From the NCBI GenBank assembly GCA_902762785.1, contig CACWPL010000001.1, forward strand, positions 124,001 to 188,000: a stretch of 64,000 bases of DNA, written 5' to 3'. Within the stretch, counting starts at the first letter, position 1. Every line of letters starts with the position of its first letter. Shown here piece by piece: positions 57,534 through 63,008 of this stretch. The notes below the pieces were generated by a model. That model was not told the origin of the DNA. It saw only the letters and a program-made list of their open reading frames with translations, and made no database searches. This stretch comes from an uncultured Ruminococcus sp. Lineage in GTDB: Bacteria > Bacillota > Clostridia > Oscillospirales > Ruminococcaceae. The translations under genes were made by a program, and so were the position numbers.

Positions 57534-57547
57534 GTCCTCAAAGACGA

Positions 57548-57776
57548 GCGCCCCTCTCGATGTGAGAGGGGCGCAGCTTGTCGAAAAACCTCACTTTTAC
57601 GATTTGACGCTTGTTGATACCGCCGCCGTAAGGCGGCGGAAAAAGCGGCGGCGGCCCGCAGGGCCGCCATTTTCTCCCCCCGCCCCTGGGGGCGGGGGGC
57701 AGGGGGGGGGGGAGAAGCCGCCTAGAAAAACGACTTTTTTGACAGACTGGCGCCCCTCTCGATGTGAGAGGGGCGC
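57548..57776. repeat. Intergenic element bounded by a repeated palindrome
   Basis: A 27-base palindrome (GCGCCCCTCTC, GATGT, GAGAGGGGCGC) occurs exactly at 57548-57574 and again at 57750-57776. Just inside, the two ends are imperfect inverted repeats (CTTGTCGAAAAA at left; TCTGTCAAAAAA on the opposite strand at right). The interior has stacked GC-rich hairpins (GCCGCC/GGCGGC, CCGCCCCTGGGGGCGG) and a run of ten G. This looks like a MITE- or REP-type insertion. Confidence 0.8.
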
Positions 57777-57852
57777 TTTTCGTGGGCTGCGGCATCTCCA
57801 CGGTGGAGAAGTGGAAAGTGTGCCATCCTTCGATGCAGACGTTGATGCCCCG

Positions 57853-58555: not shown

Positions 58556-58732
58556 TCAGGAGCTGCTTGCCGCAAGCGTCGGCCGCCCCTGATCGGTGAA
58601 GCCCAGTAGACGGCACAGCACCTCCGCCGAAAGGCCGGACAGATCAGGCTTCTTCTCCTGCATGATAGTAAGATACCGGTCGAATGCACTGGTCTGGATG
58701 TCCTTCATGTCAGCACGGTCGGAGGTCCGCAA
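58556..58732 (-). CDS. Small ORF of unknown function (start uncertain)
   Basis: An open frame ending at 58556 whose last 50 or so residues (MKDIQTSAFDRYLTIMQEKK, then DLSGLSAEVLCRLLGFTDQG) look like a real helical protein. A consensus promoter lies inside the longer open frame (58779-58807), so the gene should start after about 58771: a TTG at 58732 or the ATG at 58708 are the choices, neither with a strong ribosome-binding site. It may be a gene remnant. A terminator follows at 58490-58531. Confidence 0.4.
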   Translation of the reverse strand: MRTSDRADMKDIQTSAFDRYLTIMQEKKPDLSGLSAEVLCRLLGFTDQGRPTLAASSS

Positions 58733-58778
58733 CTCGTCCTGGATCTTCTTGCGGAACGCTTCAAAGCTGTAGACCTCT

Positions 58779-58807
58779 ATTATACGAGATCTATTAGGAT
58801 CTGTCAA
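58779..58807 (-). promoter_or_regulatory. Promoter of the small ORF
   Basis: On minus: TTGACA (58807-58802), 17-base spacer, TATAAT (58784-58779). A perfect consensus promoter facing the small ORF. Confidence 0.8.
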
Positions 58808-58911
58808 GATGAAAGTCTTATAAAATGATATTTGAGTCTGATGAAATTCGCATAGATCAGGAAGAAGTCGAAAGAAATGCGTTTTTGTGACTTCTTTTTC
58901 AGATAACAAAG

Positions 58912-58940
58912 AGCCGTGCAGTTTGAGGGCTGCACGGCTT
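58912..58940 (-). terminator. Terminator of the RecQ/DprA/SEC-C cassette
   Basis: On minus AGCCGTGCAG pairs with CTGCACGGCT around a short loop, followed by CTTTGTTAT. It lies 12 bases after the SEC-C gene stop. Confidence 0.75.
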
Positions 58941-58951
58941 GATCTGTGCTT

Positions 58952-59896
58952 TTATTTCTTCCCACAGCATCGCTTATACTTCTTCCCGCTCCCGCAGGGA
59001 CACAGTCCGTTCTTGCTCGGTGTTTTTTCGGAGATGCCGCCCTGCTGTTCCAGCTCTGCAAGAAGCATCCCGCGCACGTCATCGCTAAGAGTATCCTTCT
59101 GCATGACCCTCTGCATCCATTCCTTTGCATCCAGCGTGCTGTCGGAGAGAGCCGGCCTGAAGATGATCGATCTCGGTCTTCCGTCCCCCTCTCGTTGATG
59201 CAGCTCCTCCGGCGTAAAGCCGCGGTTATACGGAACACGAGTGGTGTTGTTCAGATCCTTTATCAGTCTTCCGAGCTGCTGTGCCTCCTTGAGCGTCATA
59301 GGGATCTGCATCCGTTCAAGATCGTCAAAAACAGCTTGGATGGGGTTTGAGCCCTCACAGCGAACGACAAGGATCGTTTCAAGCAGCAGCTCCTCTGCAT
59401 CCTTGCGGCTCCGGTGCAGCACCGTTTGAAAAAACTGCCGCAATGCCTTTGTGGCGGACGTTTCCTCATAATAATCCTCGTCGGCATATTTCAGAAGGTC
59501 TTTCATATCCGGGATGTAGAGCGGCTTCCCCTGCTGTGCCTCCAGCACCTCGTCATAGCCTTCAAAGCCAGATATGACGAGCGCTTCATGGATCAGCTCC
59601 CGGTCGATCGGCTCGACAGGTCTGCCGTCTGTGTAGATCTCGTCCTCTGCCAGGATATGATAGAAGTGCTCCTCATGACGCATGATCTCGGCGAAGGCAA
59701 GGAACCCCTCTTCCGTGACGGCCTCGCCCATCTGATGCAGGATCGCCAGCAGATCTCGCAGCGTGATGATTCCGTACAGGTTCGCGGCAGCGTCAAAGAT
59801 CTGCCGATATTTGTCGAGCTGTGCATCGTTCCAGTTCAGCTTACGATACATGCGCATCAAGGTACGTTCGGCGTACATTCTGGGAAATGGTCTCAT
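58952..59896 (-). CDS. SEC-C motif protein of unknown function
   Basis: A 314-residue soluble, mainly helical protein with a C-terminal SEC-C zinc motif, CPCGSGKKYKRCC at 299-311 (the SecA-tail type zinc-binding module). The rest (RMYRKLNWNDAQLDKYRQIF, LRDLLAILHQMGEAVTEEGF) is not recognised. The ATG at 59896 follows AAGGAGGAC and sits 42 bases after the DprA-like gene. SEC-C modules often occur as adaptors in nucleic-acid and defence loci; a role with its two neighbours is inference. Confidence 0.75.
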   Translation of the reverse strand: MRPFPRMYAERTLMRMYRKLNWNDAQLDKYRQIFDAAANLYGIITLRDLLAILHQMGEAVTEEGFLAFAEIMRHEEHFYHILAEDEIYTDGRPVEPIDRELIHEALVISGFEGYDEVLEAQQGKPLYIPDMKDLLKYADEDYYEETSATKALRQFFQTVLHRSRKDAEELLLETILVVRCEGSNPIQAVFDDLERMQIPMTLKEAQQLGRLIKDLNNTTRVPYNRGFTPEELHQREGDGRPRSIIFRPALSDSTLDAKEWMQRVMQKDTLSDDVRGMLLAELEQQGGISEKTPSKNGLCPCGSGKKYKRCCGKK

Positions 59897-59938
59897 GGCA
59901 AGTCCTCCTTCGGATGATGATCATTCACGGTCGTCCGA

Positions 59939-60877
59939 TCAAAGCAGCGTGAGCTGTATCGGCTCCTCCGGCTGTTCCGGGAGCTTCGTCACGTCGCCGT
60001 CCCAATTTTCGCCAATGGGGATCGCGCCGAGCTTGATGAGCGCCTGGTTGCCGCGATATTTTGGGTCATCCCAGCAGAATACCGGTGTGATCTCGTGCTT
60101 GATACAGTCCACTGCGCCGCTCCATGTGCCGCCCTTCTTGTAGTCTGCCCGCACTACCACTGTCCCGACGGACTGGGCGTAGATATAGCGGTTGCGCATC
60201 ATCGCGGAGGCGGCCGTAAATCCCAGATCCGGCTTGACAGCAGAGAGCAGCAGGAGCTGTCCGCGCTGGATCGCCGCGATGACGTCCCGGCTGCGGATGC
60301 GCTTGACCATCGAATCGGCGAGATACGAAATGACCGCGCTGCCGTTTCGGAGGGCGGTATCACCGGCGATCGTATCCACGCCCTTCGCACCGCCTGAAAC
60401 GATCGCATACCCACGCGCATCGACCTTCGAGACCGTCTGCTCTGTGAACCTCTGATCGATCTCATCGACGTTCCGGGATCCGACATATCCGACGCACTTT
60501 TTACCGGCAAGCGACAGGTCCCCAGCATAGTAAAACAGCGGCGGACAGCGCTTGCCGAGCCTTGCCTTCAGCATCTTGGGATAGCCGGCATCCGCACGGG
60601 TGACGACCGAGATGCCCATACTCTGGTATTTTTCCAGTTCAAATGTCAGATTTGCGCCCCGCCTGAGGAGCTGCCGGATGCGGCGTGTCTCCTCGGTCCC
60701 GATGGCGAGCTCTCCGAATGTACTGTCGGACATGTCGGGCAGCTCCTTTGGTTCGAGACCCGCCTGCATCAATCTGTCGGCGAGCCGCGACCATTCCGAG
60801 GGCTCCAGTGGCTTACAGTCGACATCCGCGAGCAAATGACTGCATAGCAGGAAAATGATCTCTGCATTCTGATTCAT
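59939..60877 (-). CDS. DprA/Smf-like protein
   Basis: A 312-residue protein with a DprA (DNA processing A) Rossmann fold: GYPKMLKARLGKRCPPLFYYAG, GSRN at 133-136, then RGYAIVSGGAKGVDTIAG (SGGAKGVD at 161-168) and a nucleotide-loop region. Classical DprA loads RecA onto incoming single-stranded DNA. The N-terminal 90 residues and the C-terminus differ from chromosomal DprA, so it is probably a paralogue specialised for this cassette. It overlaps the helicase gene in ATGA. Confidence 0.85.
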   Translation of the reverse strand: MNQNAEIIFLLCSHLLADVDCKPLEPSEWSRLADRLMQAGLEPKELPDMSDSTFGELAIGTEETRRIRQLLRRGANLTFELEKYQSMGISVVTRADAGYPKMLKARLGKRCPPLFYYAGDLSLAGKKCVGYVGSRNVDEIDQRFTEQTVSKVDARGYAIVSGGAKGVDTIAGDTALRNGSAVISYLADSMVKRIRSRDVIAAIQRGQLLLLSAVKPDLGFTAASAMMRNRYIYAQSVGTVVVRADYKKGGTWSGAVDCIKHEITPVFCWDDPKYRGNQALIKLGAIPIGENWDGDVTKLPEQPEEPIQLTLL

Positions 60878-62943
60878 GTCTCGTTCCCCCTATTCTCCGA
60901 GCTGTCTGCCAGTGCAAATGGGAAGACCGACTCACAGCCCGCCTGTGTGAGCAGATAGCCGCAGACCGTCATCGTCCATCGCGAGTCCACGATGTCATCC
61001 ACCAAGATGACTCGAGCCGGCATCGAGATGTCTGGGATACAGGCAAACGATCTCCATGCATTCCGGCACTGGTGATAACTATTCTCCATGTCCTTCTGCT
61101 GCCGGGTCCCATGCTTTTCCAGGAGCTGCACAAAGGGCAGTCTGAGACGCTGGGCCAACGCTTCTGCAAGATCAGCGACGATCGTACTGCGCAATGACGG
61201 GACACAGGTCACAGCAGTGATCCCGTGCGTGCGCACGACATCCCGCAGCACCGTCGCAGACTTTCCGATCAGTTCTTCACAGAATCCGGGCGGGGTCCCA
61301 TATTTCCCCTGCTTGACGAGCATCCCATAGCCGGGATCGCCGTATTTGGACAGGCAGAGCCCCTCGTGGTTCGGTACAGGGATCTTGAACACACCCGTAA
61401 AGTCCTTACTGGGGAACTGCTTTCGCGGCTCGATCGGCAGGATCAGCCGTTCGAGATACGTCTGTGCTATGCGAAGGGCATCCATGCCCGGGTGTTCCGG
61501 ATACTCCGGATAGCCAAGGCAATTCCGGCAGATCCCGCAGTCCTCGGCTGTCGTGTCATCCAGGCAATTGACCACAAAGCGGCTCAGACATCCTTGTGTA
61601 TGTACCAGTTCACGCATCTGCTGTTGTTCCCGGTAACGGACGGCCTTGATCGCCTCGTAGTGCGCCCGATCATAGCGGAACGGATGCAGGGTAGGGTAGT
61701 ATCGCGCGCCGTCTTTGACGATGATCTCCTCATTGCGCAGGAACATCAATGCCTTGTCCACACGCGCTTTCCGGATGTTGACGAGCCCTTCGACGGCTCG
61801 CCCGGTGATCCCTTCCTCTGCATGGGATAAGACCGCGTCATAGACGGCTCTCGCCTCCTGCTCGGAGGGAAAAGCAGTCTCAATGAAGTATTCTTGGATC
61901 ATCCGATCTTCCTCACCGCACATCAGGAACGTATACGCGCGGTCGATGCTTCTGCCCGCACGTCCGATCTGCTGATAGTAGGCGACGATGTTGGACGGCT
62001 GCTGGTAGTGGATGACGAAGGAGATATCGCCCTTGTCATACCCCATGCCGAGCTTGATCGTCGCAACGAGCACCTTGATCTGATTCTCCCGTAAACGCTG
62101 TTCTGCATCATTGGTCTCTGTCTGCTCCAGACCAGAATGATAGGCGACCGCTCGGATGCCGTTCTTTTGCAGAAAGTCTGCCAGATAGTCACAGTCTCGC
62201 TGTGTCAGACAGTAGATGATACCGCTTCCGGGGAGCCGCGGGACATTCTCCAGGATCCAGGCATACCGCTCCGCCGACGTGGACAAGGGCAGGATCTGGA
62301 TGGAGAGCGAGCGCCGCATCAGCTCTCCGCGAGAGATATACACATCGTCCCCCAATTGCTGCTTGAGATCGGCGATCACGCGGTCATTGGCAGTGGCAGT
62401 CGTGCCGAGTACGGGAACGGTCTTGGGCATTTGCCGGATGATACGGTACAGGCGGGTATATTCCAGCCGGAAGTCATGCCCCCAGTCGGAGATACAGTGC
62501 GCCTCGTCGATGACGAACAGCCCGATCGGGATGGAGGGCAGTGCAGCCTGCACCTCATCAGTGAACAGCGTCTCCGGCGTGATCAGGACAAGATCCAGCT
62601 CGCCTGCACGCATCGCATCGAGCTGCTCCTGTCGTCTGTCTTTGGTCGTGCTGTTCAGCACAGCACAGTGAAGACCCATCGCTTCCGCCGATGCGAGCTG
62701 ATTCTCCATCAGCACGAGCAGCGGACTGACGACCATCGTCACACCCTGCCCCTGGTCACGCAGGAGCTTCGTGCAGACAAAATACACCAGGCTCTTCCCC
62801 CAGCCAGTCTTCTGGACGACCAGCGTCCTATGGTGCGTGAGCGTCGCTTCGATGGCCTCGTACTGCCCCTCACGGAACGTCGCATCTGCGCCGTAGATCG
62901 TGCGAAGGATCTCCGAGGCTCGGGCGTGTATCATAGCGTCCAT
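60874..62943 (-). CDS. RecQ-family helicase fused to a phosphoribosyltransferase-like domain
   Basis: A 689-residue fusion. Residues 1-480 are a RecQ-type superfamily 2 helicase: motif I TGWGKS at 46-51, DEAH at 146-149, TTATA at 181-185, motif VI QIGRAGR at 325-331, and a zinc-binding set with cysteines near 452, 469, 472 and 475. Residues about 515-689 form a ComF/PRTase-like domain, with TAVTCVPSLRS at 577-587 and the PRPP-loop-like VILVDDIVDSRWT at 645-657. The ATG at 62943 follows GAGGGG. It leads the three-gene cassette. Confidence 0.88.
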   Translation of the reverse strand: MDAMIHARASEILRTIYGADATFREGQYEAIEATLTHHRTLVVQKTGWGKSLVYFVCTKLLRDQGQGVTMVVSPLLVLMENQLASAEAMGLHCAVLNSTTKDRRQEQLDAMRAGELDLVLITPETLFTDEVQAALPSIPIGLFVIDEAHCISDWGHDFRLEYTRLYRIIRQMPKTVPVLGTTATANDRVIADLKQQLGDDVYISRGELMRRSLSIQILPLSTSAERYAWILENVPRLPGSGIIYCLTQRDCDYLADFLQKNGIRAVAYHSGLEQTETNDAEQRLRENQIKVLVATIKLGMGYDKGDISFVIHYQQPSNIVAYYQQIGRAGRSIDRAYTFLMCGEEDRMIQEYFIETAFPSEQEARAVYDAVLSHAEEGITGRAVEGLVNIRKARVDKALMFLRNEEIIVKDGARYYPTLHPFRYDRAHYEAIKAVRYREQQQMRELVHTQGCLSRFVVNCLDDTTAEDCGICRNCLGYPEYPEHPGMDALRIAQTYLERLILPIEPRKQFPSKDFTGVFKIPVPNHEGLCLSKYGDPGYGMLVKQGKYGTPPGFCEELIGKSATVLRDVVRTHGITAVTCVPSLRSTIVADLAEALAQRLRLPFVQLLEKHGTRQQKDMENSYHQCRNAWRSFACIPDISMPARVILVDDIVDSRWTMTVCGYLLTQAGCESVFPFALADSSENRGNET

Positions 62944-62979: not shown

Positions 62980-63008
62980 ATTATGATCCATCTCATGTAA
63001 AATGTCAA
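62980..63008 (-). promoter_or_regulatory. Promoter of RecQ-PRTase/DprA/SEC-C cassette
   Basis: On minus: TTGACA (63008-63003), 17-base spacer, CATAAT (62985-62980), 37 bases before the helicase start. Confidence 0.75.

What the first reader, a model, noticed from the sequence alone, without database searches (positions are those of the whole stretch)
58952..62943. Three-gene RecQ-PRTase / DprA / SEC-C cassette, possible defence or DNA-uptake-control system
A RecQ-type helicase carrying a C-terminal phosphoribosyltransferase-like domain, a DprA-like protein (ATGA overlap) and a SEC-C zinc protein (42-base gap) form one operon with its own promoter and terminator, near sporulation and repeat elements and visibly lower in G+C than the thi or spoIVA genes. 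Helicase plus DprA plus a nucleotide-handling domain suggests detection of aberrant or incoming single-stranded DNA coupled to nucleotide or PRPP chemistry. All core motifs seem intact. I cannot tie it with certainty to a named defence system.
Basis: partly seen in the sequence, partly recalled or inferred. Interest (0 to 1): 0.82.

Follow-up and report, generated by a model that had tools for sequence, protein, structure and literature searches.

The report
PsyrTA toxin-antitoxin operon, extra gene
The cluster is a known type of bacterial self-poisoning, anti-virus gene pair (PsyrTA, also called RqlHI) in a spore-forming gut-type clostridium, with one extra zinc-motif gene of unknown role that was found with the pair only in this genus.

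Summary
Genes 1 and 2 are a PsyrTA (RqlHI) toxin-antitoxin/defence module: the RecQ-PRTase matches the PADLOC PsyrT model over its full length (E 7e-235) and the DprA-like protein matches PsyrA (E 4e-90). PsyrA lies next to PsyrT in 73 of the 80 relatives kept from a capped scan. The genome has a separate, better-matching dprA and a second RecQ-like gene.

The SEC-C gene is not a general part: it is in none of those 80 relatives, nor in two other family carriers. It does follow the pair in the three carriers of this genus (3 of 38 genomes; one copy cut by a contig end) and is under purifying selection (dN/dS 0.19). Cassette dS (0.37-0.52) is below that of the adjacent spoVT piece (0.88), the only core gene compared. 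In three relatives the pair lies beside Cas3/Cse1, a serine recombinase, or a NACHT-like ATPase; the window neighbours scanned show no defence genes.

Likely action: PsyrA restrains a toxic PRTase domain, released on DNA-linked phage attack; tested only for RqlHI, by others. Gene 3: role unknown.

The parts
60874..62943 (-). PsyrT/RqlH-like toxin: RecQ helicase (about residues 10-370), RecQ-type Zn cysteines 469/472/475, C-terminal PRTase domain (about 490-689, PRPP loop 645-657)
   Evidence: PADLOC PsyrT E 7e-235 over 6-683; motif conservation in 78 rows; PRTase domain: homologues L059 and L047 above the Pfam cut-off, profile match to PRPP synthetases and PRTases in the PDB
59939..60877 (-). 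PsyrA/RqlI-like antitoxin: DprA fold, short form without the C-terminal extension
   Evidence: PADLOC PsyrA E 3.8e-90 over profile positions 4-301 of 398; Pfam PF02481 118 bits; 22 residues from N291 to the end, against 69 or more in 38 of 73 relatives
58952..59896 (-). Gene 3: 314-aa protein with C-terminal SEC-C motif; accessory, found with the pair only in this genus
   Evidence: Pfam SEC-C E 1e-6; copies in G318 (83% over the whole length) and G320 (88% over the first 86 residues, then the contig ends) by tblastn; dN/dS 0.19 against G318; none in 80 relatives
62980..63008 (-). sigma-70-type promoter-like site of the operon
   Evidence: TTGACA-17-CATAAT; kept in G318 and G320
58912..58939 (-). 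terminator-like hairpin after gene 3
   Evidence: 10-pair stem, 7 G-C pairs; lies in a segment of about 380 bases that is absent from G318

Best explanation
A PsyrTA (RqlHI-type) toxin-antitoxin and abortive-defence module on a horizontally exchanged low-G+C cassette upstream of spoVT, with a third gene in the same operon in this genus. PsyrT is a RecQ-like helicase whose C-terminal PRTase domain is the toxic effector. PsyrA, a DprA-fold protein, binds that domain and holds it in check. When the helicase/DprA pair meets abnormal DNA, such as phage replication or recombination intermediates, restraint is lost and the PRTase damages nucleotides or DNA, stopping growth. Seen here: the operon, the motifs, the pairing, the patchy spread and defence or mobile neighbours in three relatives. 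Shown by others for RqlHI: PRTase-dependent toxicity, the antitoxin role and binding. Inferred: the DNA trigger, the chemistry and defence in this host. Gene 3 is most likely an accessory protein that the core does not need.
For: Full-length PADLOC matches for both proteins. K50, D146, E147, D649 and W656 are identical in 78 of 78 rows (three loci with broken or short ORFs dropped). PRTase domain: of five homologues scanned two pass the Pfam cut-off (L059, L047), two are below it and one (L017) shows no PRTase match; a 30-row profile finds PRPP synthetases in the PDB (E 2e-5). Separate dprA and second RecQ-like gene. Patchy: 3 of 38 genus genomes, 3 of 297 in the family sample, 4 of 394 in the order sample. 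Cassette dS 0.37-0.52 against 0.88 for a spoVT piece. Neighbours of the pair: Cas3 and Cse1 in G223, a serine recombinase in G190; in G318 a NACHT-like ATPase upstream and, about 10 kb downstream, HsdM/HsdS. RqlHI biology: PMC4670107 (passages). DprA+PRTase defence against T7 and lambda and the DprA-sensor hypothesis: PMC9122126 (passages).
Against: The window neighbours scanned gave no PADLOC match: 13 likely genes of 40-64 kb and the three shadow frames opposite some of them, so the window itself shows no defence island. The NACHT-like protein of G318 is below its Pfam cut-off and has no PADLOC match. The neighbours of the 80 relatives were not scanned for defence families. Two of the three other order carriers (G524, G566) show no PsyrA beside PsyrT in the 1.5-kb flanks held, and the third (G674) has it. 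A native PsyrTA showed no detectable protection and a growth defect in E. coli NILS69 (PMC12409345, passages). PMC4670107 reports that 99.6% of Gram-positive bacteria in its set encode only RqlH. The PRPP loop reads DSxWT where usual PRTases have a TTGxT-type loop (recalled), so catalysis is not certain. The dS contrast rests on one core gene with a much higher GC3 (0.89 against 0.67-0.74).
Confidence: 0.82

Rival explanations
1. About gene 3 only: a real three-gene variant, in which the SEC-C protein is a working third component, for instance a second restraint on PsyrT, a damage sensor, or a stand-in for the extension missing from the short PsyrA.
For: Gene 3 follows the pair in 3 of 3 genus carriers (cut by the contig end in G320), with dN/dS 0.19 and dS like that of psyrTA, and no promoter-like site on that strand between the genes. 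A gene-3 relative lies upstream of a Y-family polymerase and an Exo_endo_phos protein, in a stretch with serine recombinases, in G140; a similar order is seen by eye in G530, of another family.
Against: The three carriers look like one lineage of the cassette, not independent cases. Absent from 80 of 80 relatives, 61 of which have PsyrA and at least 1,100 bases after it. 35 of 73 PsyrA relatives are short forms (two of them cut by contig ends) and do without it. No shared genome beyond the own one: 8 with gene 3 and 3 with PsyrT of 297, 9 and 4 of 394.
Confidence: 0.18
2. About gene 3 only: a passenger, a free-standing SEC-C protein that landed behind psyrTA and is kept for an unrelated reason.
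For: Its relatives lie in varied contexts without PsyrTA: among apparently metabolic or transport genes (L119, L122, L123, L226), near recombinases (L120, L121), and at one place beside topoisomerase-like genes in two genomes of one genus (L124, L125) (most neighbours read by eye).
Against: It follows the pair in all three genus carriers and is under purifying selection.
Confidence: 0.6
3. About the whole operon: DNA-uptake or recombination control (a competence-linked DprA/ComF-like module) rather than defence.
For: DprA fold plus helicase plus PRTase recall DprA and the comF operon; PMC4670107 raises this idea (passage).
Against: Separate better-matching dprA; patchy cassette; three relatives beside defence or mobile genes.
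Confidence: 0.06

Closest known systems
PsyrTA / RqlHI toxin-antitoxin and defence system
   Same: Gene order, close spacing, toxin with RecQ and PRTase domains over the full model, DprA-fold antitoxin, motif residues.
   Different: The antitoxin lacks the C-terminal extension (RqlI's HTH region, dispensable in PMC4670107, passage); a third SEC-C gene follows; the host is a spore-forming clostridium.
ShosTA
   Same: PRTase effector with a DprA-fold antitoxin (recalled for ShosT); window PsyrA matches a ShosA model (E 1.6e-23) and a solved ShosA chain, 9vzo (E 3.8e-8).
   Different: ShosT has no RecQ helicase (recalled); the PsyrA model scores 301 bits against 82 for ShosA.
Housekeeping RecQ and DprA
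   Same: Helicase core (above the cut-off of the RecQ subfamily model, 271 against 220 bits) and DprA fold.
   Different: Below the NCBIfam equivalog cut-offs (recQ 319 of 640 bits, dprA 85.9 of 191); other dprA and RecQ-like genes exist in the genome.

Membership tests
PsyrTA / RqlHI | Toxin with RecQ-like helicase and C-terminal PRTase | tested here: met
   the window PRTase domain alone is below the Pfam cut-off (17.7 of 26.3 bits)
PsyrTA / RqlHI | DprA-fold antitoxin directly downstream | tested here: met
   73 of 80 relatives
PsyrTA / RqlHI | C-terminal HTH region of the antitoxin (as in RqlI) | tested here: not met
   22 residues from N291 to the end; profile matched 4-301 of 398. Dispensable for RqlI in PMC4670107 and missing from 35 of 73 relatives (two of them cut by contig ends), so not taken as defining
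PsyrTA / RqlHI | Toxin toxic alone, neutralised by the partner; anti-phage effect | not testable with these tools
   needs expression assays
ShosTA | PRTase toxin without helicase (recalled) | tested here: not met
   RecQ core present
Canonical DprA | Score above the NCBIfam dprA equivalog cut-off | tested here: not met
   85.9 against 191.15 bits; other copy in genome
Three-gene conserved system | Gene 3 recurs with the pair outside the genus | tested here: not met
   0 of 80; no shared genome but the own one and 79/80

The most novel reading that the evidence does not exclude
A three-component PsyrTA in which a SEC-C zinc-motif protein works as an extra control or sensor on the RecQ-PRTase toxin; relatives of this protein lie near a Y-family polymerase and an Exo_endo_phos protein in what looks like a mobile element, so the family may be a damage-linked accessory.
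Probability: 0.17. Interest if true: 0.5.

Novelty: new member of a known kind. Interest (0 to 1): 0.3.

Why it matters
It gives a named toxin-antitoxin/defence pair, antitoxin included, in a clostridium, whereas a 2015 survey (PMC4670107, passages) found the antitoxin almost absent from Gram-positive bacteria. The 13 closest relatives (L003-L015), several of them clostridial, carry a short antitoxin, while L016, L028 and L064 carry a long one. It also yields one testable extra gene and a set of about 80 relatives for studying the unusual PRPP loop of the toxin.

Tried and rejected
Gene 3 as a general third component: not borne out by relatives. The genus was not searched with gene 3 alone. 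Gene 3 as a phage gene: no relative in viral contigs, one partial match in annotated phages, four matches in plasmids, one of them full-length at 36%. PsyrT: five loci in viral contigs, not studied further; in annotated phages 19 records at E <= 1e-40, none covering 80% of it. ORF 58556-58909 as a fourth gene: no family match, and its segment is missing from G318, so it is left out. Rfam over 56-64 kb: nothing. Paper searches: PsyrTA, RqlH/RqlI, PsyrT/PsyrA/RecQ/toxin, SEC-C motif/anti-phage, ShosTA (swamped by unrelated words), PRTase/DprA/RecQ. I saw passages of PMC4670107, PMC8790059, PMC9122126, PMC12409345 and PMC10925250 and no whole paper. The 2013 paper that found PsyrTA by shotgun cloning is cited in those passages and was not read; the 2022 test of its defence is recalled.
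Full report
What is there. Three co-directional genes on the minus strand: 60874-62943 (689 aa), 59939-60877 (312 aa, 4-base overlap) and 58952-59896 (314 aa, 42-base gap). A promoter-like site lies at 63008-62980 and a terminator-like hairpin at 58939-58912; the scan found 7 sites of each kind against 3.0 and 3.2 expected. The promoter hexamers and their 17-base spacing are kept in two relatives.

Identity of genes 1 and 2. PADLOC PsyrT E 7.1e-235 over residues 6-683 of 689, and PsyrA E 3.8e-90. The PRTase domain is weak in the window protein alone (Pfam 17.7 bits, cut-off 26.3). Of five homologues scanned, two pass the cut-off (L059 31.7, L047 29.3), two are below it, and L017 shows none. 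A 30-row profile finds PRPP synthetases in the PDB (E 2e-5). In 78 aligned proteins (window plus 77 of 80 loci; three dropped for broken or short ORFs) K50, D146, E147, D649 and W656 are invariant, D650 is in 77, and the three Zn cysteines are in 71-74. The loop reads VDDxVDSxWT, unlike the TTGxT-type loop of ordinary PRTases (recalled). The genome has another dprA at 234.8 bits against 119.3 for this gene, and a second RecQ-like helicase (37% identical).

Pairing. PsyrA lies within 900 bases after PsyrT in 73, there is no room in 1, and it is absent with room in 6. Window PsyrA is a short form with 22 residues from N291 to its end; 35 of the 73 relatives are likewise short (46 or fewer, two of them cut by contig ends) and 38 have 69-277. 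RqlI's extension holds an HTH that is dispensable for RqlI function (PMC4670107, passage).

Gene 3. Only its SEC-C motif is recognised. It is in 0 of 80 loci, and ten family members, each without its last 25 residues, find nothing in these loci plus the two family carriers; 61 of the 73 loci with PsyrA have at least 1,100 bases after it. In the family sample, matches at E <= 1e-15 occur in 8 of 297 genomes and PsyrT in 3 of 297, shared only in the own genome; in the order sample, 9 and 4 of 394, again shared only in the own genome. In the genus PsyrT is in 3 of 38, and in both other carriers gene 3 follows; the contig of G320 ends inside it. For window against G318, dN/dS is 0.147, 0.129 and 0.189 for the three genes and dS 0.515, 0.368 and 0.427, against dS 0.876 for the last 151 codons of spoVT, the only core gene compared, whose GC3 is much higher. 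So it is a real, kept gene, but seen in what looks like one cassette lineage.

Context. Window against G318 is similar from PsyrT to spoVT codon 35, except for about 380 bases (58563-58947) that G318 lacks. In G318 a NACHT-like ATPase (below the Pfam cut-off, no PADLOC match) lies upstream of PsyrT, and spoVT is cut by an element with an AbiLi-like ATPase, PDC-M48 proteins, HsdM and HsdS. In G223 the pair adjoins Cas3 and Cse1; in G190 a serine recombinase. The short flanks of the three other order carriers showed nothing telling by eye; G674 has PsyrA, while G524 and G566 show none. In the window, 13 likely genes of 40-64 kb and three shadow frames opposite some of them gave no PADLOC match (gene choice by Pfam, and by eye). 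Neighbours of the 80 relatives were not scanned.

How it works. For RqlHI the PRTase domain is needed for toxicity, RqlI binds RqlH and binding is lost without that domain, and RqlH alone causes SOS induction and filamentation (PMC4670107, passages). A DprA+PRTase pair protects against T7 and lambda, and a DprA sensor was proposed (PMC9122126, passage). One native PsyrTA gave no protection and a growth defect (PMC12409345, passages). I therefore read the window genes as toxin and antitoxin with a DNA-linked trigger; the trigger and the chemistry are inferred.

Verdict. A member of a known kind, with one accessory gene worth a simple test.

Noticed in passing
L194:2530-4710 (G318); places in G302, G305, G307, G310, G316: In 6 of 38 genus genomes the spoVT C-terminal part (from about codon 22-29) continues an upstream open frame, 726-749 codons in all; in G318, the only one scanned, this is a serine recombinase fused to SpoVT_C (Pfam). 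It looks like a sporulation-gene-intervening element. Two searches with spoVT and recombinase, excision or intervening words listed no paper whose title tells of such an element in spoVT.
   Followed up: partly
L209:8098-11169 (G318): A 1023-aa protein matching the RdRP family PF05183 (50 bits, cut-off 23.8) lies in the spoVT element among type I restriction and candidate defence genes.
   Followed up: partly
window 57540-57850: Interspersed repeat with matches at 45 places in the genome, the window copy included; two 33-base palindrome-like copies at 57542 and 57744.
   Followed up: partly
window 58563-58947: Segment of about 380 bases absent from G318, holding most of a 117-aa ORF without family matches (58556-58909) and a perfect promoter-like site on the minus strand (58807-58779); no second copy found in the genome.
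   Followed up: partly
L120:9529-14152 and L228:4564-8988: Gene-3 relatives upstream of a Y-family polymerase and an Exo_endo_phos protein, with other ORFs between, in genomes of two families; L120 neighbours confirmed by Pfam, L228 read by eye.
   Followed up: partly
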